Both the position numbers and the translations under genes were made by a program. Shown here piece after piece: positions 3,711 to 14,630 of a stretch of DNA of 60,310 bases (its first letter is position 1; each line of letters begins with the position of its first letter). This stretch comes from Nitrospirota bacterium (lineage in GTDB: Bacteria > Nitrospirota > Thermodesulfovibrionia > Thermodesulfovibrionales > SM23-35). Below the pieces are notes generated by a model. That model saw only the letters and a program-made list of their open reading frames with translations, did no database searches and had not been told where the DNA came from. The stretch covers positions 1 to 60,310 of the forward strand of contig JACAFE010000060.1 in assembly GCA_013388435.1 (NCBI GenBank), written 5' to 3'.

Positions 3711-4652
3711 TCATTGACTTCCTGCATAGCAATATATACAACGATGCTTACACGTGTTATATTGTCCTATATCTTTGCTCGGAATGCATCCACAATACTT
3801 TCTTTGACCTTTGTCTTTAAAGGCTTTCTTTTTGTTATTTTTTGTCTCTGATAAATAACCTTGATTAAGAAACTCCATCAATTCTTTATCTTGATTAAAC
3901 TCTCGTATCATAAGAGTATCATCAATACATTTATTATGATTTATACCATATTCTGATAAATCCACCTTTTCAGCGCATGTTGCGATTTCAATATTCCACT
4001 CGTTTTTCATTTCTTTTAAACCTTTGGCTATTCTAATCATATGCTCGTCTGTAAATTCTTTGCAATCAATAAAACCTGCTTTCAACAAATTATTCCTGAC
4101 TTTTCTGTAAAGATTAATATCTATAAAACTTATTACAAGTTTTTCTGTATATTTATGTATTAATTTCCCGATGTTATATATTTTATTAAGTAAAATATCT
4201 ACGGATATCTTATCTGTTAAAATCAAAGGGTCAAACCTCCAAATTGTTCTTGCCTTTCCAATATAATCTGATAATTTTTTGAATGTTTCTATTCTGCCTT
4301 CTAACGGAGGTACTTCAGGCTCTAATTTTTCTTTTTCATAATCATTAAGAGTAAAAGTAAAATAATAATTTATTACTTTTCTATCTAATTCTGGCAGAAA
4401 TTTTAAAATAGGTTCCGCATTCTTAGTCCAGAATATTATTGCTCTTGTTTTTTCAAACGAGACATGTTGTGATTTTCCATTAAAACGATTAACCCATTCT
4501 ACATAACCTTTCCTGAGCCTGTGCATAAACCACTCGGAATAAAATGCAGGGATGTCAGTGACCCTGCTTGCTGAAATAATAACAGGAGCAATACCATTAA
4601 TTGGACCTTTATCTGTTTTGATTATAACTTTTCGCCAGCCTTTAAAAGACAT
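3711..4652 (-). CDS. DUF1848 family protein, C-terminal CX3CX2C cluster
   Basis: A 313-residue soluble protein matching DUF1848 by its N-terminal ISASRVTDIPAFYSEWF segment and by FWTKNAEPIL. The last residues contain Cys301, Cys305 and Cys308 (TCKHRCIYCYA), the spacing of a radical SAM [4Fe-4S] triad but at the C-terminus rather than the N-terminus. Two more cysteines (YCGC) lie about 20 residues upstream. An iron-sulfur protein is likely and the substrate is unknown. The gene is monocistronic, convergent with the peptidase gene, and 320 bases from the divergent slp gene. Confidence 0.8.
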   Translation of the reverse strand: MSFKGWRKVIIKTDKGPINGIAPVIISASRVTDIPAFYSEWFMHRLRKGYVEWVNRFNGKSQHVSFEKTRAIIFWTKNAEPILKFLPELDRKVINYYFTFTLNDYEKEKLEPEVPPLEGRIETFKKLSDYIGKARTIWRFDPLILTDKISVDILLNKIYNIGKLIHKYTEKLVISFIDINLYRKVRNNLLKAGFIDCKEFTDEHMIRIAKGLKEMKNEWNIEIATCAEKVDLSEYGINHNKCIDDTLMIREFNQDKELMEFLNQGYLSETKNNKKKAFKDKGQRKYCGCIPSKDIGQYNTCKHRCIYCYAGSQ

Positions 4653-6066: not shown

Positions 6067-6072
6067 TTAACT

Positions 6073-6090
6073 GATTTTGCTTGCAAAATC
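6073..6090. repeat. Perfect palindrome at res 3' end
   Basis: GATTTTGC and GCAAAATC are separated by TT, within the last codons of res. With the T-rich flank it may act as a terminator on the minus strand. Only the palindrome is certain. Confidence 0.4.
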
Positions 6091-8460
6091 AACGAAATTG
6101 TCGAACCAATATTTTCTGTAATTTTCCAAAACCTCTGCTATTCCTCGTCTTGGTTTGAGCAATAGTTTTGTGTTTATGACAAATCCGTTGTACGAAAAAT
6201 CTCTGCTTTCTTTTTGCTCGCCAATTTCAAATATCCTTGAATAGCCATCAATTTTTCTGTATCCGTCCGCCTGTTCAAATAAAGTCATTTGTCTTTCAAA
6301 TTCTTTTCTGGGAATTTTTCCGTACTGATTGTCTAACTCTTTTTGTCTTTCAGGATAATGCCGAACTTCCTCAATTTTTCTTTTAATTTCTTTGTATTTC
6401 TCGCCATCGCTAAACCTGACCTTTTTGAAATGCACGATTTCATTTTCCAATTCCTTAAACTTCTCAAACTCCTTGCTTTTAACTCCAAGGTAATCAAAAA
6501 TCCGATCAAGAATTAACTCCGGCTCAAAGAGTGAATTCCTTTCGCCCAAATCATAGTATCGCTCTTTTTCCGCAAAACTTTCTTTTGCTTTATTCAAAAC
6601 TTTCACATCGCAATCATATTTGGCCAAAGCGATTTTATCGCCTAAAAATCCGTAAAATTTCGACGTTATATCAAGATCTTCTCGGCTGACAGGATATTTT
6701 TGCGGGTCTTTTTCTTCAGCAAAAATTCTCTCGGAATCACGGTAAACAGGTATTAAGAGAAGTTTCCCTTCTCTTTTAGGATTGACAATAAATGCCTCGC
6801 CTAAATTTTTATCCTGTTTTTCTGCCTTTAGAGTAGCGATTATCTCTCGTAGGTTTTCGGCGTTCGTCCCAAAAACAAACAAACTCTCTATCGGCAAAAT
6901 CAGATTTTTAATTTTTTCAAATAACTGCTCTTTTACTTCATTTGCATTGAAAAAATTTTGAAGACGCTTTCTTTTGTTTTTCTGCGGCTCTATTCGGACA
7001 CCTCTGCCAACCGACTGTAGAACGAATTTTTTGGCGTCGCTTCCTACTCCGATATTTACAAACAAAAGAAGATTTGGTCTGTTAGAATCCCAACCCTCAT
7101 AAAAAGAACGCGAACCCATTAAAACATTTATGTCAGAATCATCGCGATTTATCCGCCTGAAATAACTTTCGTTTTCAAAACTTTCGTTTATTTCGTATCC
7201 CTCAAGTTTGTCTTTTAGCCAGCCGGAAATGTCGCCGATTTTGATTAACGCAAACGGCTTTTCAGCCGTCATCAACCTAAAAATCAGTTCGTTTCTATTG
7301 CCGGGAATTTTTAATACCTCAATCTTGCCCGGAGTTTTAGCATTCAAAACATATTTTAAAACATCTTTGTAATCTAATTTTGAAATTAAATCGGCGTTTA
7401 CTACGCAGTCCAACTCCTCAAACTCAAATGTTGGATGGTTGCTAAACTCTTGAACAATTTCCTCTTTTGCTTTATTGAGCAAATCTGCCCTAATTTCGTT
7501 CTTCGCTACTTTTTCTAACTCTCTAAAAAATAACTCCAAATCAGATTCTTCTACATCTACGGAATTAACCAATGTCAAAAGAAGCGGGCGGTGGTATAAG
7601 GCATTATCAACTTTCCTGATTTTTTCAAAATACTTGTTGATGCAAGTCAGAAGTAAAAGCGTCTTCAAAACAATTTTCTGTTTTTCAATCGGCGAAAAAT
7701 CACCCCGACCGCGAAATGCACTAATCTCGGCAGATGACACATAAATATGCTTGCCGTAACCTTCTTCAACAAACTTTGAAAGATTGAAATTAAAAACACA
7801 TGTTGCAAAGTCTCTTGGGTCTGTAAAGGTGGCAGAAAAATTAAACAGAAATCCGTTTCTTGAAAGTATGGAGTATAAAATCTGTCGCTTGCTGTCTTCC
7901 TTGTCGCCCTTATGGGCTTCGTCCAAAAGAATGTACCATTTGCCGCTGTTGTCATAATTTCTGAAATTCACGATTTTTTCTTTCTGTTCATCAGAAATTA
8001 AATCGGAACGATAACAAAAAACAGTAATCTCGTTTTTAGCAAACGGCAGGGCGTTTTCGCGCTTCACACTATCGTAATCTCTCAAATTTTTAAGATTTAT
8101 CTTTGTGCCAAAATTAAAACTATTAAATTCCTCAACATGATTTTTAAACTGGTCCAAAAGGTCATCACGGTGCGCCAAAAAAAGAATGTCACGCGCCGGC
8201 AATTCTTTTTCAGCAACGAGTTTACCCAAAAGTTCAATCAGTTTAACAATAATCAGCGTCTTGTCCGAGCCGGTCGCCATCCAAAAACTCATCCGATTGA
8301 TAAAGTGAGTAAAGGATATTTTATTATCAACTATTTGATAATCTTCAGGATATTCCAAAAGATATTTTGCCGCTTTCCTTTCACGATTTAGGTTATAGTC
8401 AAAATTTTCTGTAAAATCGTTTGCTTGGTAGTGATTAAACAAACTTTGCTTTAATTTATT

Positions 8461-8502
8461 CCCCTTTTGTAGAGGGGTGTCTGCGACAGCAGACGGGGTG
8501 TT
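8461..8502. repeat. Palindromic element inserted in frame in res
   Basis: Two adjacent hairpins: CCCCTTTT/AGAGGGG (imperfect, 8461-8477) and GTCTGC/GCAGAC (8479-8484 and 8489-8494), followed by GGGGTGT. Read in the res frame it encodes a Pro/Thr-rich insert (NTPSAVADTPLQKGN). The same architecture occurs, in the opposite orientation relative to the gene, at 13764-13800. Confidence 0.7.
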
Positions 8503-8666
8503 TCCTTTGAAATAAAGCCATAAGCCGCGCAAAGCATTTTTAAGCGCATCCTTTTGAAAATCAAATAGTGTTTTGTCGGAAGAAAATCTGCCAAAATCAA
8601 ATCCCTGCCACTTTACTGGCAAGTTTTCCAGAGCAATATTTTTTACAATATCTTATAAATATAATT

Positions 8667-9680
8667 TCATATCACCAACAAATTAGTAATGATTTTAATC
8701 AATTTATCTTTTTCCTTCGGGTTGCTGACTGCAATTAAAAGAGCCAGAGCAGTTAAAGCATTGTCATTAATTTTTTTCTCCCCGGTTTTTCGGTAAAGGA
8801 AATCATTTTTATCAAGGAAATAAATAAACAAAAACGAAGCAATTCTCTTATTGCCATCTACGAAAGGATGGTCTTTGATGATAAAATATAAAAGATGAGC
8901 GGCTTTTTCTTCTAATGATAGATATAATTCATTTTTCCCAAAAGTTTGGTAAATGTTGCCCAAAATGCCTTGAAATTTTTCACCATTCTCTTGTCCAAAC
9001 AAATCGCTCGCTTCCCTTTTGGCAATCAACTCTTTCTTTATTTCTTGAATAACTTTAATAGAGTTTTCGTATTTCAAAACAAACTTGCCTTTCGTTTTTT
9101 TAACCAGCGATAACTTTTCTTTATCATATTGTTCAAGAAGAGTGAGCGTTTTTGAGTAGTTTGCAAGTAAATTCAAAATTTCTTGCTCTTGCCCGACTAA
9201 AAGTTTGTGTTTAGATTTTTCTTGTAAAAAAGAAATAGCGCCTTGCAATTCTTGCAATTGATTGCGCGCCTGCAAAAGCCGCTCTTCGTTGATGGTATAA
9301 CCTTTAACCAGATGATCTTTTAGCGTTTTAGTCGCCCAAATGCGGAATTGTGTCGCTCGTTTTGAATTGACTCTGTAACCAACAGAGATAATAGCGTCTA
9401 AATTATAAAATTTAACTTTCTTTGTTTGAGTTTTGCCTTTAATAGCGCCGTGTGAAGTGGTTTGTTCCAAAATGGAACTAACCACTTTTTCATTTAATTC
9501 GCCGGTAGTAAAAATGTTTTTTAAGTGCTTGGTAATAGCTGGCCTTTGAGTGCCAAAAAGCAAAGCTATTTGCGCTTGCGTAAGCCAAATAGTCTCTTCT
9601 TCCAAACGCACATCTAACTTGGGTCCTTCTTTGGACTTATAAATAACTATTTCACCTTTTTGGAATTCAGCTTGTTTCAT
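8667..9680 (-). CDS. RhuM-Fic/Doc fusion protein
   Basis: A 337-residue protein. Residues 1-150 match the RhuM/virulence-associated family (LTQAQIALLFGTQRPAITKH, FYNLDAIISVGYRVNS, RATQFRIWATKTL), a likely DNA-binding module. A coiled linker leads to a Fic domain with the complete catalytic motif HPFVDGNKR at about 271-279, so AMPylation or a related transfer is expected. Such fusions are common next to restriction-modification genes. The ATG overlaps the stop of an upstream 3' gene remnant (9677-9680) and its stop overlaps the natural res start, so it was the middle gene of a tightly coupled operon. Whether it is a toxin, regulator or defence effector cannot be decided. Confidence 0.85.
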   Translation of the reverse strand: MKQAEFQKGEIVIYKSKEGPKLDVRLEEETIWLTQAQIALLFGTQRPAITKHLKNIFTTGELNEKVVSSILEQTTSHGAIKGKTQTKKVKFYNLDAIISVGYRVNSKRATQFRIWATKTLKDHLVKGYTINEERLLQARNQLQELQGAISFLQEKSKHKLLVGQEQEILNLLANYSKTLTLLEQYDKEKLSLVKKTKGKFVLKYENSIKVIQEIKKELIAKREASDLFGQENGEKFQGILGNIYQTFGKNELYLSLEEKAAHLLYFIIKDHPFVDGNKRIASFLFIYFLDKNDFLYRKTGEKKINDNALTALALLIAVSNPKEKDKLIKIITNLLVI

Positions 9681-9766
9681 AAATAACTAAATTCAAATAC
9701 TTGCCACTTGGTTAGCAAATTTTCAAAGGGAATATCGTCTATGATGTCTTGGAAGATACATCCGCA
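9677..9766 (-). pseudogene. 3' remnant of a gene upstream of rhuM/fic (mod or res-like)
   Basis: Immediately after the AlbA_2 gene stop, a frame without a start encodes FQDIIDDIPFENLLTKWQ, then VFEFSYL and a stop overlapping the next ATG as ATGA. The segment resembles the start of res (IALENLPVKWQGFDF). The stop-start coupling suggests it is the surviving 3' end of the gene that once preceded rhuM/fic, most simply the methylase (mod) whose 5' end survives at 13628-14188. A partial duplication of the res 5' end is the alternative. Confidence 0.5.
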
Positions 9767-9768
9767 TA

Positions 9769-10926
9769 TTATTTTTTCTTTCTTGGGATTTTTACAACAA
9801 ACTCATTATCATTAGCTATTAACTCAACATCAAGCCCAATATAATCTTTTACAAGTTTTATCATTCTTCTCACACCACTACCCAAATCTGTTACCATCTG
9901 AAATTTTGTAAGCATGTTATAAATGTGAGGGTTTCTCAATACATGAGAGCCTCCAGCCTTCATGCTTTCAATAGTTACTGTATTTGGTAATCTCCCAGGA
10001 CTGTGAATTTCTATTTTATCAGTAAAAATTAAAATTCTTATAGGCGCACTTATAGTGTAATCACGGTGTGCCAGAGCATTGACCACAGCTTCTCGTAACG
10101 CTGGTATAGGTATTTCAAACTTAGTTTCTGGTTCGAAATCTTTTATGACATGTTCTTCTCTAAGATAAATTTTAAAGAATCGTTCTGTATCTCCTATTAT
10201 TTGGGAAATAACGCCATTAACATCCTTCTTATCCAAAGGAGCTGTGGCAATATCATCTCCTTCTATATAAGCACAGACAATTCGTGCTTCTTTTAAGAAA
10301 TATTGTGGGTTTTTACCGAAAAACAAAAGACCTGTTATAGTAGGCACTAAATCTTTATCTACTAAATGTAAATTCTTAAGGTATGATAATACTTCCTGTT
10401 CATTAATCTCCGTAATACTCTGAGATAGGTAATCTTTTAGAAACGATTTAAACAATTCCAAATCAATATTTTCTAAATTAGCGTTTGTTATTGATAACTC
10501 ATCATAATAAATACTTTCGGAACTTTGAAATAATCTAAGAATCTCCTCCCTCGTAGCTTCTCTACACCGGTTAGATGAACGAATGTAAAATTTTCCTTTA
10601 CACTGATAAGGTCTCTGAATTCCTTTCGGGATATTGATAATTACTATATTTTTATCATTAATGGCAGCAGTTTCCTGTAAAATAGTAACTGGTGGTTTGC
10701 ATAAATTTAGTGCTAAATCGTCTATTCTAAGCATAAATTTATCAACATCATTAATTCCGATTATTGTTCCATCATCAGCGACCCCTGCAAGTATTTTTCC
10801 TCCATCTGTATTTGCAAATGAAACTATTGTCTTGGCAAAATCATCATTGTTTTCATCTTCTCTTTTAAATTCAAGGTGATAACCCTCTCCTTTAGCAATA
10901 ATCTGTCTAATTTCTAATTCAGTCAT
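9769..10926 (-). CDS. AlbA_2 (Schlafen-like) ATP-binding protein
   Basis: A 385-residue protein. The N-terminus is an AlbA_2 domain (YHLEFKREDENNDDFAKTIV and SFANTDGGKILAGVADDG), and the central to C-terminal part carries the conserved REAVVNALAHRDY and HSPGRLPNTVT segments of the family's HATPase-like module, then a short winged-helix-like tail ending KIPRKKK. AlbA_2 proteins are predicted nucleic-acid-binding or Schlafen-type factors, frequent in defence islands. Its ATG overlaps the TrlF stop by 4 bases (ATGA), so the two are translationally coupled and probably act together. Confidence 0.8.
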   Translation of the reverse strand: MTELEIRQIIAKGEGYHLEFKREDENNDDFAKTIVSFANTDGGKILAGVADDGTIIGINDVDKFMLRIDDLALNLCKPPVTILQETAAINDKNIVIINIPKGIQRPYQCKGKFYIRSSNRCREATREEILRLFQSSESIYYDELSITNANLENIDLELFKSFLKDYLSQSITEINEQEVLSYLKNLHLVDKDLVPTITGLLFFGKNPQYFLKEARIVCAYIEGDDIATAPLDKKDVNGVISQIIGDTERFFKIYLREEHVIKDFEPETKFEIPIPALREAVVNALAHRDYTISAPIRILIFTDKIEIHSPGRLPNTVTIESMKAGGSHVLRNPHIYNMLTKFQMVTDLGSGVRRMIKLVKDYIGLDVELIANDNEFVVKIPRKKK

Positions 10927-13622
10927 AATTTTACTCCATATTTTTGAATTCTCTTTTTAAATGCTTCTTCCCCTCCTTCCATAATTTTCTTTATGTCTTC
11001 AGTAATGGACATTTTATCAATGGAGCCTGAATTTCTAATTTTACACTGGTCTGCTTCTACATCCAAAACAAATATCTGCTCTGAATCGCCAAGTACTGGA
11101 ATATTAGCATTATGGGTGGCAAAAATTAATTGCCTTTTATCTTTCATCTCTCTTAATATTACAACTATATCATCATAAATAAATCTATTATCTAAATCTT
11201 CTTCCGGCTGGTCTATGATTAGAATTCTTTTTTCCTGTGAGAAAAGCAAAATAAGCAATGCGGTTGCTTTTTGGCCATCAGAAAGCTTTTCAAATGGCTT
11301 ATATTCATCTCCCACTTTCAATTTGATTGTAATTAAATCTTCTGGAAATAAAATTTCTAATTGATACAATTTGCTTCTGTCTTTAAACCAATCTGTAATT
11401 CTCTTAGTCATTGCATCTGTAAGTTGAAAATATTTTTGAAGTTGTTCAGCACCTGCTTCTATAATTTTTGAAAGTTCAACACCATCTATTGTTATATTTT
11501 TATTATCTATAATTTTTGAAATAGCATCTTCACTGACTTTAGAACCATATAGCAAAGAACCTAATTTGTCCTTGAATTCTTTTTTATCCGACTGATAACT
11601 AATTTCAAGCTTTACTCTGCCTGAGAGTTGCTCATTTATCTTTTCTATTCGCTCTTTTCTAAAGTCAAAAAGATTATGTCTTTCTTTCTGGATATCTTTC
11701 TTTAGAGATTTCCTTTCCATTTCCAATTGCTGTTTTTGCTTTTCTATTTTTTCATATTCTTTTATCAGGGGCTCTAATCGGGATTTTTCCTGAATGAGTG
11801 CTTCGTATTTATCTGGAGATAACCCTTTTGCCGACAATTCTTTTTTTATCTCCTCGGAATTTTTTCTATTTTTTTCGAAACGGTTATTCCATTCAGTAAG
11901 AACATTATCTAATTTCTTTTCTATTTCGGCTGACCTGTTAGAAAAATCTTTAAATTGACCTTCTAAATATTCTTTGTATTCTCTTATAATGTTCCCCGCA
12001 TCTAATAATAATTGTTTTTCCGGGCTTTCACCTTTAAGAAGACTATCCTGTGCATTATTTATTTCCTGAATAAATTCTTGATATTGGGTTATTAAGTCAT
12101 CTTTGCCTGATTTAAATTTTGATATAGCTGTTTTTAAAATATTGCTATCTTTTGTTAACAGGGCGAGCTCCTTCATTTTTCGAGCTACACCTAATTCTTC
12201 AAATGTTTTTATATGCTCATTGATAGTTTTAAGCCTTTGCTCATAATCCTCTTTTTGAAGTAGTTTGTTCTGCAGATTTAGAAGTTTTTCTCCATTTTCT
12301 TTTAGTAAATTTAATTTTTTATTGAATTCTATTTTCTTCTTTTTTATTTCATCACCTATGAGTTGGTCAACTAATTTTCGTTGGAAGTCCTGATTATTGG
12401 ATAATACATAAAGTTCCTTCTGCCCTAAAAGAATAGGAGAGTTTTCCTCAAACAATTCATCCGGTGGAATATTTTTCTCCTCTACAATTGGTTGTTGTCC
12501 GATAACTCTACTAACAGTATACGGAATTTTTTTATCACCATATCTTTTTAGCAATCTTACGGTAATTTTCCCGCCACTTCCCACTACATTCTGAACAAAT
12601 TCTTCTCTAAAGGATTCTTCCGCATAAGATGGTAAATCAAGACAATAACGAATTGATTCAATAATGGCGGATTTTCCTACACCCCTTCCACCAATCAGAC
12701 AGTTCAGGTTGCTATTGAAATTTATTTTCACATCCTTTAAAAATTTCGCACCTGAAATTTCAATAGATTCAATCTTATCTCCTATTTCTTCCTGTTTTTC
12801 ATACAACCTTACGCGTAAAGAAGGGTCCTGAAAGGCTATGCGGATAGCATTTATAGAAACACTGCTTAATTTAATATAAGTGCATCTTGTTTTATCACCT
12901 CTTTGCTTACAACCAATTTCATCTATTGATTTTGGGTCTGTGTTTTCTAAAACAGCAATTTTATTTTTAAAAAAATCTTTATTTATTTCTCCTGTTGAAA
13001 CTAATTTGTTTATACCTTTGTCTGATATGAATTCAATTGCATCAGCAAGTTTTAATAAATTGGCTGCCTCTTTAGCCTGATTTGCATCAAGCAATCCGTT
13101 TTTATCTTCAGGATGTGGAAAAATAACAAGGCAAGAAAATTTATCGTGCAATTCATTAAGAACATCGCTTAAATTATTCTTAAGAGAAATATCTCTGTGG
13201 CTCCTGTCGCTGTTAATCAACGGCTTTTCAGGCGCTTGATCTAATGATTTAATATAATCATTTATACCGTCTATGTCGGACTCATAATCAAAAATTATCA
13301 AAATATGCAGTCCTTTGCCAAGTGTTACAGAAAGTTCTATGCCCGGAAAAACAAAAATATTTTCTTTTACTGCCTTTTCCTGAAACTTTTTAAACCATTC
13401 AGTTCTTATCTGTTGATAATCAGTTATAGCACATATCTTAATTTCCTTTTGTTTAAGTTTTGATATGTATTGGTCCATTATATTTTCAAGAACAGAATCA
13501 GAATTGAGATTGACCCCAGAAGGCAACTTAAAACTATCAACTAAAGGCGAATGAAGATGCAAATCGCATCTTATCCAATCAGCACCATAGTCAAATAAAT
13601 CTACTTCTGAAAAATTTTCCAT
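10923..13622 (-). CDS. TrlF-type PHP / SMC-like ABC ATPase
   Basis: An 899-residue protein. It starts with a PHP phosphoesterase domain (DLHLHSP at about residues 20-26, later FPGIELS and FPHPEDKNG), then an SMC/RecN-like ATPase: Walker A GGRGVGKS at about 309-316, a long coiled coil at roughly 430-700, signature LSDGQKATA, Walker B RILIIDQPEED and a final ATHNANIP. The PHP part may hydrolyse nucleotides or nucleic acid under control of the ATPase. The ATG at 13622 is preferred over an upstream GTG-like start at 13640 because GGGAG precedes it and the upstream reading frame ends at 13628. It is coupled to the AlbA_2 gene. Both look intact, unlike their neighbours. Confidence 0.8.
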   Translation of the reverse strand: MENFSEVDLFDYGADWIRCDLHLHSPLVDSFKLPSGVNLNSDSVLENIMDQYISKLKQKEIKICAITDYQQIRTEWFKKFQEKAVKENIFVFPGIELSVTLGKGLHILIIFDYESDIDGINDYIKSLDQAPEKPLINSDRSHRDISLKNNLSDVLNELHDKFSCLVIFPHPEDKNGLLDANQAKEAANLLKLADAIEFISDKGINKLVSTGEINKDFFKNKIAVLENTDPKSIDEIGCKQRGDKTRCTYIKLSSVSINAIRIAFQDPSLRVRLYEKQEEIGDKIESIEISGAKFLKDVKINFNSNLNCLIGGRGVGKSAIIESIRYCLDLPSYAEESFREEFVQNVVGSGGKITVRLLKRYGDKKIPYTVSRVIGQQPIVEEKNIPPDELFEENSPILLGQKELYVLSNNQDFQRKLVDQLIGDEIKKKKIEFNKKLNLLKENGEKLLNLQNKLLQKEDYEQRLKTINEHIKTFEELGVARKMKELALLTKDSNILKTAISKFKSGKDDLITQYQEFIQEINNAQDSLLKGESPEKQLLLDAGNIIREYKEYLEGQFKDFSNRSAEIEKKLDNVLTEWNNRFEKNRKNSEEIKKELSAKGLSPDKYEALIQEKSRLEPLIKEYEKIEKQKQQLEMERKSLKKDIQKERHNLFDFRKERIEKINEQLSGRVKLEISYQSDKKEFKDKLGSLLYGSKVSEDAISKIIDNKNITIDGVELSKIIEAGAEQLQKYFQLTDAMTKRITDWFKDRSKLYQLEILFPEDLITIKLKVGDEYKPFEKLSDGQKATALLILLFSQEKRILIIDQPEEDLDNRFIYDDIVVILREMKDKRQLIFATHNANIPVLGDSEQIFVLDVEADQCKIRNSGSIDKMSITEDIKKIMEGGEEAFKKRIQKYGVKL

Positions 13623-13627
13623 CGTTT

Positions 13628-14188
13628 TTACTCCCACCAAATTAATGGCTTAATTAATTTATAATCCAAATCTTCACGGACTTTATCTAACTCAAAAATA
13701 AGCGAGCGTTTTTCGTTGGCTTTTTTAGATTCAATTTTTGAAGCGTCGAAGTAAAACTTTAAACACCCCGTCCCTTTGGGACACCCCTCTATAAGAGGGG
13801 AATTTTCAAACTCAACCGGCAAACTTCTGAAAATCCGGTCAGTTTTAACATAATAAAGCATCTGTGTTTTCCAAAAGAGAATAACATCTTTTTCGTCGGT
13901 ATAAACCTTTTCGTAGATATTGTTGTGAAATGGCGTTGAATTGAAATAGATTGAGCCGCTTTCGGTAAAGTAGCGGCTGAAAAAGGAATAGAGCTTATCA
14001 AAAAGCTCGTCCCGAAAGGCAGGATATTTTCCCAAGGCAGTTTCAATATCTTTTTTAAGAATATCCTCAATCTTGCGGTAGTAATTTGATTTTATCCTCA
14101 TCAAATTAACAAAACCGCCAGTGCCTTCAATCTTGGCGCCGATAAATACATCTTGCAGGGCTTTGTAAAATTTTTGTTCTTTGGTCAT
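13628..14188 (-). pseudogene. mod: N-terminal remnant of type III-like DNA methylase (Mod)
   Basis: 186 codons match, from memory of the family, the N-terminal region of large methylases paired with Res (MTKEQKFYKALQDVFIGAKI, KLYSFFSRYFTESGSIYF, KDVILFWKTQMLYYVKTDR, SKKANEKRSLIFE). No SAM-binding or DPPY motif is reached: the frame stops after LIKPLIWWE, exactly where the TrlF gene begins. The usual protein is several times longer, so this is a 5' fragment and not a functional methylase. An in-frame palindromic repeat interrupts it at 13764-13800. It lies 5 bases after the xre gene. Confidence 0.65.
13764..13800. repeat. Palindromic element inserted in frame in mod fragment
   Basis: GTCCC/GGGAC (13770-13774 and 13778-13782) is followed by CCCCTCT/AGAGGGG (13784-13790 and 13794-13800), preceded by CACCCC. 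This is the same two-hairpin layout as at 8461-8502 but with a different first stem, so pairing is conserved rather than sequence. In the gene frame it encodes NSPLIEGCPKGTGCL. Confidence 0.75.
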
Positions 14189-14193
14189 AGTGT

Positions 14194-14403
14194 TTATTTC
14201 ATTAAATCATCAAGCGAAACGCCAAGGGCTTTGGCGATTTTTTGTGCGGTGTCTATTGTGGGGCTTTGAATTGCCCCCGACTCAATTTTGATAATCGTAT
14301 TATGGGAAATATCAGCCAATTTGGACAATTTGTCTTGCGACAACCCCCTTTGCTTTCGCAACTTTTTTATATTCTTCGCTATTGTTGTTTTTTCGTTTGA
14401 CAT
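14194..14403 (-). CDS. XRE-family HTH regulator
   Basis: A 69-residue Cro/CI-type helix-turn-helix protein (IKKLRKQRGLSQDKLSKLAD, ISHNTIIKIESGAIQSPTID). It is the first gene of the island operon and probably controls it. A -10-like TATCAT (minus strand, 14410-14415) lies 6 bases before the ATG, suggesting a leaderless transcript. Confidence 0.85.
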   Translation of the reverse strand: MSNEKTTIAKNIKKLRKQRGLSQDKLSKLADISHNTIIKIESGAIQSPTIDTAQKIAKALGVSLDDLMK

Positions 14404-14445
14404 TATTGTATGATAGTATTAGTATTAAAATACAATGACTATCCT
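14401..14445 (-). promoter_or_regulatory. Putative promoter/operator of xre operon
   Basis: GATAGT (14412-14417) and ACTATC (14438-14443) form an inverted pair with a 20-base spacer containing a smaller GTATT/AATAC pair. It overlaps the predicted -10 region, as expected for autorepression by the XRE protein. Weak evidence. Confidence 0.3.

Positions 14446-14552: not shown

Positions 14553-14630
<78 letters not shown>

What the first reader, a model, noticed from the sequence alone, without database searches (positions are those of the whole stretch)
10923..13622. Coupled TrlF (PHP-SMC) and AlbA_2 proteins as an intact candidate defence pair
In a stretch where restriction genes are broken, these two genes are full length, keep all visible catalytic motifs and overlap by ATGA. 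PHP phosphoesterase plus SMC-like ATPase followed by a Schlafen-type AlbA_2 ATPase suggests a sensor-effector system acting on DNA ends or tRNA. I know both families from defence islands but not a characterised two-gene system of this exact make-up.
Basis: partly seen in the sequence, partly recalled or inferred. Interest (0 to 1): 0.62.

Follow-up and report, generated by a model that had tools for sequence, protein, structure and literature searches.

The report
Restriction-embedded TrlF–TrlG (Schlafen) suicide module
Two overlapping genes encode a DNA-sensing ATPase and a Schlafen-type RNA-cutting protein; the same pair recurs across bacteria and archaea, often wedged inside restriction or BREX operons, and probably acts as a back-up that stops cell growth when those first-line phage defences fail.

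Summary
10923-13622(-) is only the first gene, a TrlF-family PHP+SMC ATPase; its partner, SLFN_AlbA_2+GHKL, lies at 9769-10926 and overlaps it by ATGA. The pair is already known as trlF-trlG of the Photorhabdus 'temperature restriction locus' (2020), where trlG mutations or deletion of the operon relieve growth arrest at 36 C; it was not described there as phage defence. TrlG directly follows TrlF in 82 of 105 loci, from many phyla and archaea, and the two co-diverge (Mantel r 0.93). The pair is repeatedly embedded in methylation-based defence operons: 38 of 82 pairs lie near such genes and 23 lie between genes of one system (Type III, Type I, BREX, DUF499 systems); 20 control regions have none. 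The window is such a case, between the remains of Type III mod and res. Window TrlG keeps the Schlafen triad (E14/E19/D51); window PHP has lost two of eight scored ligands, so 'all catalytic motifs kept' is not exact. Best reading: a portable, PrrC-like, RM-linked abortive-infection module in which TrlF senses and restrains and TrlG arrests growth by RNA cleavage. The activity itself is untested.

The parts
10923..13622 (-). trlF: PHP domain (about 15-275) + SMC/Rad50-like ABC ATPase with a short coiled coil (282-893); 899 aa from ATG
   Evidence: NF045780 504.5 bits, cut-off 350. AlphaFold pLDDT 90.8; SMC head match Z 19.9, PHP match to endonuclease Q 7k30 Z 17.5. Walker A G311-S318, signature S781-G783, Walker B 804-807 conserved.
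9769..10926 (-). trlG: Schlafen AlbA_2 lobe (14-124) + GHKL/histidine-kinase-like ATPase (294-379); triad E14/E19/D51
   Evidence: PF04326 and PF13749. AlphaFold pLDDT 93.5; SLFN lobes Z about 10, 3lmm Z 23.8, GHKL ATPases Z about 10. Family profile hits SLFN14/12/11 structures at about 1e-10 to 1e-7.
10923..10926 (-). ATGA overlap of trlF stop and trlG start
   Evidence: Sequence.
13628..14188 (-). mod remnant: Type III methyltransferase N-terminus (about 172 aa) joined to its last 13 codons; its end (GGTGGGAGTAA) can serve as Shine-Dalgarno for trlF
   Evidence: 84% aa identity to an intact 865-aa Mod in L222; the terminal LDYKLIKPLIWWE is shared with L222 and L223. PADLOC MTase_III 4.5e-60.
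14194..14409 (-). HTH_3 (Xre-type) regulator at the head of the operon
   Evidence: PF01381 4.6e-20.
8667..9680 (-). RhuM-Fic protein, further cargo between the mod and res remains
   Evidence: PF13310 and PF02661. 81% DNA identity to the gene in the corresponding place in L224.
9670..9790 (-). fragment of the res 5' end (QDIIDDIPFENLLTKWQ) between trlG and rhuM-fic
   Evidence: Translation compared with L222 and L224 Res N-termini.
6067..8622 (-). res (Type III restriction subunit), decayed: early stop in the native frame (MKLYL*), altered Walker A (GSDKT), shorter than intact relatives
   Evidence: PF04851 1.1e-17; comparison.

Best explanation
TrlF-TrlG is a portable two-gene abortive-infection module that lives inside methylation-based defence operons. 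In the window it sits between the remains of a Type III mod and res. TrlF is the sensor and gatekeeper: its Rad50/SMC-like head reads DNA state (ends, unmodified or replicating phage DNA, or loss of the partner restriction complex), and its PHP domain binds or trims nucleic acid or nucleotides. TrlG is the effector: when released, its Schlafen lobe, probably as a dimer and gated by its GHKL ATPase, cuts tRNA or other RNA and stops growth. It works like PrrC with its restriction enzyme: first line the restriction system, second line the RNase. Shown here: the genes, domains, predicted folds, coupling, co-divergence and operon embedding. From the literature: trlG mutations or deletion of the whole trl operon relieve growth arrest in Photorhabdus. 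Inferred: RNA cleavage, the trigger, and anti-phage activity.
For: TrlG directly downstream in 82/105 TrlF loci. Partners co-diverge, Mantel r 0.925, best of 500 shuffles 0.14. 38/82 pairs have Type I, Type III, BREX or DUF499-system genes within 8 kb and 23 lie between genes of one system; 0 in 20 control regions. Examples: hsdR-trlF-trlG-hsdS-AAA-hsdM on a Klebsiella plasmid with overlapping genes; PglX-trlF-trlG-PglZ in L114 and L064; Mod-trlF-trlG-Res in L079, one of the closest relatives. Flanking proteins match 275 PADLOC families against 18 for random-region proteins. Window TrlG keeps E14/E19/D51, aligned here with SLFN13 E205/E210/D248, whose mutation diminishes or abolishes RNase activity (PMC5862951). 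Photorhabdus growth-relief mutations R126Q, N335D, G354V and P318R/L fall on residues conserved in 58, 59, 59 and 55 of 59 family members (PMC7554251). PrrC precedent (PMC2610378; PMC3710099).
Against: No activity has been measured; no paper in the searched library names TrlF together with phage. In a large clade that includes Photorhabdus, Schlafen position 19 is Gln, which should cripple the SLFN mechanism, yet that TrlG still arrests growth, so RNA cleavage cannot be assumed family-wide. About half of the pairs have no detected restriction neighbour (many contigs are short and detection is incomplete). In Photorhabdus the observed phenotype is temperature-linked, and no trlF mutants were found.
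Confidence: 0.6

Rival explanations
1. The pair works like Ppl: TrlF is itself the effector, a PHP exonuclease acting on DNA ends and held off by nucleotides, and TrlG is only a nucleic-acid-binding regulator or ATPase switch.
For: TrlF aligns with Ppl over most of its length (NF042955 218.6 bits, PADLOC Ppl 1.4e-47). Its PHP folds like endonuclease Q (Z 17.5). Ppl is reviewed as a PHP 3'-5' ssDNA exonuclease gated by NTPs and DNA 3' ends (PMC12904381). Six relatives with a fully canonical PHP site have no TrlG beside them, and in the clade whose TrlG has Gln19 the PHP H-x-H is kept.
Against: Window PHP lacks two of the canonical ligands (Y69, K231). A whole clade of 25 TrlF has Q-x-N for H-x-H and still keeps TrlG with its Schlafen acids. 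Growth-relief mutations in Photorhabdus hit TrlG, not TrlF.
Confidence: 0.17
2. Thermal or life-cycle growth regulator, as proposed for Photorhabdus: the locus arrests growth on temperature up-shift and is not a defence system.
For: Mutants and deletion grow at 36 C; transcription rises on up-shift (PMC7554251).
Against: Patchy, horizontally spread distribution, plasmid carriage and repeated embedding in RM, BREX and DUF499 operons across bacteria and archaea. Temperature toxicity also fits a module freed from a restraining partner.
Confidence: 0.12
3. Inactive relic: the pair was carried in with the Type III operon and is decaying with it.
For: Mod and Res next to it are broken; two PHP ligands are altered.
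Against: Both ORFs are full length with all ATPase motifs and the Schlafen triad; the PHP changes are shared by its clade (Y69 7 of 7, K231 6 of 7), so they are not local decay.
Confidence: 0.08

Closest known systems
TRL operon trlR-trlF-trlG of Photorhabdus laumondii (PMC7554251, 2020)
   Same: Same two genes in the same order with overlap, same domain layout in TrlG (PF04326 14-128, PF13749 298-365); P. bodei copy recovered here as L131.
   Different: TrlR candidate there (P. bodei) is an HTH_73 protein; in the window the operon head is an Xre HTH and a mod remnant. Described as temperature restriction, not defence. Photorhabdus TrlG has Gln at Schlafen position 19, the window has Glu.
PrrC / EcoprrI, RloC and RM-linked HEPN nucleases (PMC2610378, PMC3710099)
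   Same: An ABC/SMC-type ATPase plus an RNase wedged in a restriction operon; in relative L224 the mod-res gap holds an AAA_13 ATPase gene beside the same RhuM-Fic gene.
   Different: Two proteins instead of one; Schlafen instead of HEPN nuclease; PHP domain on the ATPase; host systems include Type III, BREX and DUF499 systems.
Ppl anti-phage PHP-ATPase (reviewed in PMC12904381)
   Same: PHP + SMC-like ATPase, alignable along most of TrlF.
   Different: Single-gene system; TrlF scores far below the Ppl cut-off (218.6 against 1000 bits) and has a Schlafen partner.
Schlafen + minimal histidine kinase 'backup effectors' of BREX/BR systems (PMC12839542); bacterial Schlafens (preprint 10.1101/2025.07.24.666596, cited there, not readable here)
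   Same: Same TrlG-type architecture and the same kind of neighbourhood.
   Different: The main text of PMC12839542 does not contain 'PHP' or 'TrlF'; the TrlF partner and the Type I/III embedding are shown here. The preprint may already cover part of this.
PARIS (AriA-AriB)
   Same: ABC ATPase guard plus RNase effector, often near BREX/RM.
   Different: AriB is a TOPRIM nuclease; none here; AriA scores only 40 bits against TrlF.

Membership tests
TrlF family (NF045780) | Score above curated cut-off over the full length | tested here: met
   504.5 bits, cut-off 350, profile 2-944 of 944
trlF-trlG pair | TrlG (AlbA_2 + HATPase_c_4) immediately downstream, same strand, overlapping | tested here: met
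   Overlap of 4 bases
Photorhabdus-type TRL operon | TrlR-like (HTH_73) first gene | tested here: not met
   The small ORF before trlF in P. bodei is HTH_73; the window HTH is HTH_3 and is separated by the mod remnant
Photorhabdus-type TRL operon | Causes temperature-dependent growth arrest | not testable with these tools
   Needs cells
Schlafen RNase | SLFN lobe fold | tested here: met
   Z about 10 to SLFN5/11/13/14 lobes, 104-107 residues, rmsd 2.3-2.7
Schlafen RNase | Catalytic acids equivalent to SLFN13 E205/E210/D248 | tested here: met
   E14/E19/D51 in the window; in the family E14 59/59, position 19 Q 32, E 25, D 2, D51 47/59
Schlafen RNase | tRNA/rRNA cleavage | not testable with these tools
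   Needs biochemistry
Ppl (NF042955) | Score above curated cut-off | tested here: not met
   218.6 against 1000 bits
Canonical PHP phosphoesterase | Metal ligands as in fully canonical relatives (H22 H24 H69 E96 H106 H170 D229 H231) | tested here: not met
   Y69 and K231 in the window; the other six kept
PrrC-like RM-linked RNase | Gene inside an RM operon | tested here: met
   Window between mod and res remains; 23 of 82 pairs embedded
PrrC-like RM-linked RNase | HEPN nuclease domain | tested here: not met
   Effector domain is SLFN_AlbA_2; no HEPN family in Pfam scan
PrrC-like RM-linked RNase | Silenced by the RM enzyme, released by anti-restriction proteins | not testable with these tools
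   Needs cells

The most novel reading that the evidence does not exclude
TrlF-TrlG is a general guard of DNA-methylation-based immunity that docks into any such operon (Type I, Type III, BREX, DUF499 systems) and has two alternative catalytic sites: one clade has lost the PHP H-x-H but keeps the Schlafen acids, another has lost Schlafen E19 but keeps PHP H-x-H, so either site can carry the effector output. The Photorhabdus temperature restriction would then be autoimmunity of an orphaned guard.
Probability: 0.3. Interest if true: 0.78.

Novelty: new variant of a known kind. Interest (0 to 1): 0.58.

Why it matters
It joins two literatures that have not met: a growth-arrest locus named for temperature, and a set of back-up RNases in restriction and BREX operons. 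If right, it explains a puzzling temperature phenotype as orphan immunity, gives bacterial Schlafens a defined ATPase partner, and yields a testable model in which one module guards four different methylation-based defences. The active-site pattern in the two proteins offers a direct way to ask which domain does the killing.

Tried and rejected
Single-sequence search of solved structures found no PHP hit for TrlF; profile and fold searches did. Viral contigs: of 53 relatives most are PHP-less SMC proteins without TrlG; one contig (L160) holds a pair, inside a Type I operon. A search for remnants of hsd genes beside the Photorhabdus pair found none, so the idea that it lost a flanking Type I operon is not supported by traces. 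I first read the catalytic Asp of TrlG as the one in the NTDGG motif; alignment to SLFN14 places it at D51. Active-site losses: on the TrlF tree the state of TrlG position 19 changes twice and PHP H-x-H five times, so the clean cross-table (32 of 32 and 19 of 19) rests on few events and is not independent evidence. Selection analysis (dN/dS) was not done: the nearest TrlF is only 47% identical. A preprint on bacterial Schlafens could not be read (no bioRxiv held).
Full report
What is there. On the minus strand the operon reads: HTH_3 regulator (14194-14409), Type III mod remnant (13628-14188), trlF (10923-13622), trlG (9769-10926), a fragment of the res 5' end (9670-9790), RhuM-Fic (8667-9680), res (6067-8622), next to a tRNA-Pro gene (14554-14630). 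The finding's coordinates cover only trlF. The ATGA overlap of trlF and trlG is real.

The proteins. TrlF passes the curated TrlF cut-off (504.5 against 350 bits) and is related to, but far below the cut-off of, the anti-phage protein Ppl. Its model (pLDDT 90.8) shows a PHP domain most like endonuclease Q (7k30, Z 17.5, rmsd 3.1 over 218 residues) and TM0559, and an SMC/Rad50 head (Z up to 19.9) with a short coiled coil. The ATPase motifs are conserved. Of eight PHP ligand positions scored on 117 relatives, the window has six; Y69 and K231 replace His. TrlG (pLDDT 93.5) joins a Schlafen lobe (Z about 10 to SLFN5, 11, 13, 14) to a GHKL/histidine-kinase-like ATPase (Z about 10), and resembles 3lmm as a whole (Z 23.8). 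Aligned through SLFN14, window residues E14, E19 and D51 match SLFN13 E205, E210 and D248, whose mutation diminishes or abolishes tRNA cleavage (PMC5862951).

Already known. The pair is trlF-trlG of the Photorhabdus temperature restriction locus (PMC7554251): spontaneous trlG mutations or deletion of the operon allow growth at 36 C; no trlF mutations were found; the authors saw homologues in other genera and, on plasmid pYR3, Type I methyltransferase genes between trlR and trlF. They did not propose phage defence. No paper in the searched library holds both 'TrlF' and 'phage'. Mapped onto the family alignment, the growth-relief mutations R126Q, N335D, G354V and P318R/L fall on near-invariant residues in both TrlG domains. 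The upstream regulator differs: HTH_73 in P. bodei, HTH_3 in the window.

Recurrence. Using TrlF from the window's phylum (24 of 396 genomes over the cut-off) and 80 loci of the GTDB contig collection, TrlG lies immediately downstream in 82 of 105 TrlF loci with at least 600 bases of room, in many phyla and in archaea (L094, L103). Distances of TrlF and TrlG correlate at r 0.925 over 75 pairs; the best of 500 shuffles reached 0.14. The searched relatives in the window's own genus and family lack TrlF over the threshold, and plasmids carry it widely, so it moves.

Context. Flanking proteins (139) match 275 PADLOC families, led by Type II/III methyltransferases, Type III restriction subunits and Type I specificity subunits; 139 proteins from random regions match 18, none by more than one protein. 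Pfam agrees. With query proteins for four kinds of system, 38 of 82 pairs have such a gene within 8 kb and 23 lie between two genes of the same system: Type III 10, DUF499-type 6, Type I 5, BREX 2; none in 20 control regions of 12 kb. The query proteins came mostly from such loci, and the loci are not a random sample, so these counts describe this set. Clear cases: hsdR-trlF-trlG-hsdS-AAA-hsdM, HsdS-trlF-trlG-HsdR (L100), PglX-trlF-trlG-PglZ (L114, L064), DUF1156 methyltransferase-trlF-trlG-DUF499 (L085, L138), Mod-trlF-trlG-Res (L079, one of the closest TrlF). Host system changes 15 times on the TrlF tree for 38 labelled tips, against 16-19 for the ten shuffles printed: the module hops between systems.

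The window locus is one of these. The 186-aa ORF upstream of trlF is a Type III mod with an internal deletion: its first about 172 residues and its last 13 (LDYKLIKPLIWWE) are those of intact Mods in relatives L222 and L223, and its end carries a Shine-Dalgarno-like GGTGGGAG just before trlF. In relatives the same mod-res gap is empty (L223), holds a Bro-N gene (L222), or holds an AAA_13 gene plus the same RhuM-Fic gene (L224). Res in the window has an early stop and an altered Walker A. So the window holds an intact guard whose restriction enzyme looks dead.

Active-site pattern. Across pairs three states appear: a clade of 25 TrlF with Q-x-N for PHP H-x-H, whose TrlG keep Glu or Asp at position 19 (19 of 19); a clade with H-x-H but N68, whose TrlG have Gln at 19 (the Gln set is 32 of 32 with H-x-H; the larger set has one Glu and one Lys among the N68 rows); and clades, including the window's, with H-x-H and Schlafen Glu or Asp at 19. 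Some relatives are fully canonical at both sites. These are few evolutionary events, so I offer them as a lead, not proof, that either catalytic site may suffice.

Mechanism. I judge a PrrC-like guard most likely (0.6): TrlF senses DNA or the state of the host restriction complex, TrlG cuts RNA and arrests growth. PrrC is the precedent: silenced by its linked Type I enzyme and released by a phage anti-restriction factor (PMC2610378; PMC3710099). Schlafen + histidine-kinase proteins were already noted as back-up effectors in BREX and DUF499 systems (PMC12839542). Rivals are a Ppl-like DNA exonuclease with TrlG as accessory (0.17), a thermal regulator (0.12) and a relic (0.08). RNA cleavage, the trigger and phage protection are all untested.

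Noticed in passing
window 13628-14188; L222, L224, L225: The mod 5' end plus mod 3' junction looks like a recurrent landing or expression platform: in relatives it precedes different cargo (AAA_13, Bro-N, GmrSD, Peptidase_M78, another Type III system), and L225 (G225) holds several partial copies in one contig.
   Followed up: partly
window 13762-13807 and 8457-8503: A short repeat (CCCCTC...GGGACGGGG type) is inserted in frame in the mod remnant and in res; similar copies occur in L222, L224 and L251.
   Followed up: partly
G000:C72:2271-5255 (L050): The same genome has a second, longer TrlF (1011-aa open frame, 678 bits) with a TrlG-like gene upstream instead of downstream.
   Followed up: partly
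L161-L192 and others (viral contigs): Many viral contigs encode PHP-less relatives of the TrlF ATPase (about 610-680 aa) without TrlG; their partners were not examined.
   Followed up: no
L159, L099, L122, L126, L135, L143, L150: A well supported clade of TrlF has no TrlG next to it although most members have room; whether another effector takes its place is open.
   Followed up: no
window 3711-4652: DUF1848 protein beside the island.
   Followed up: no
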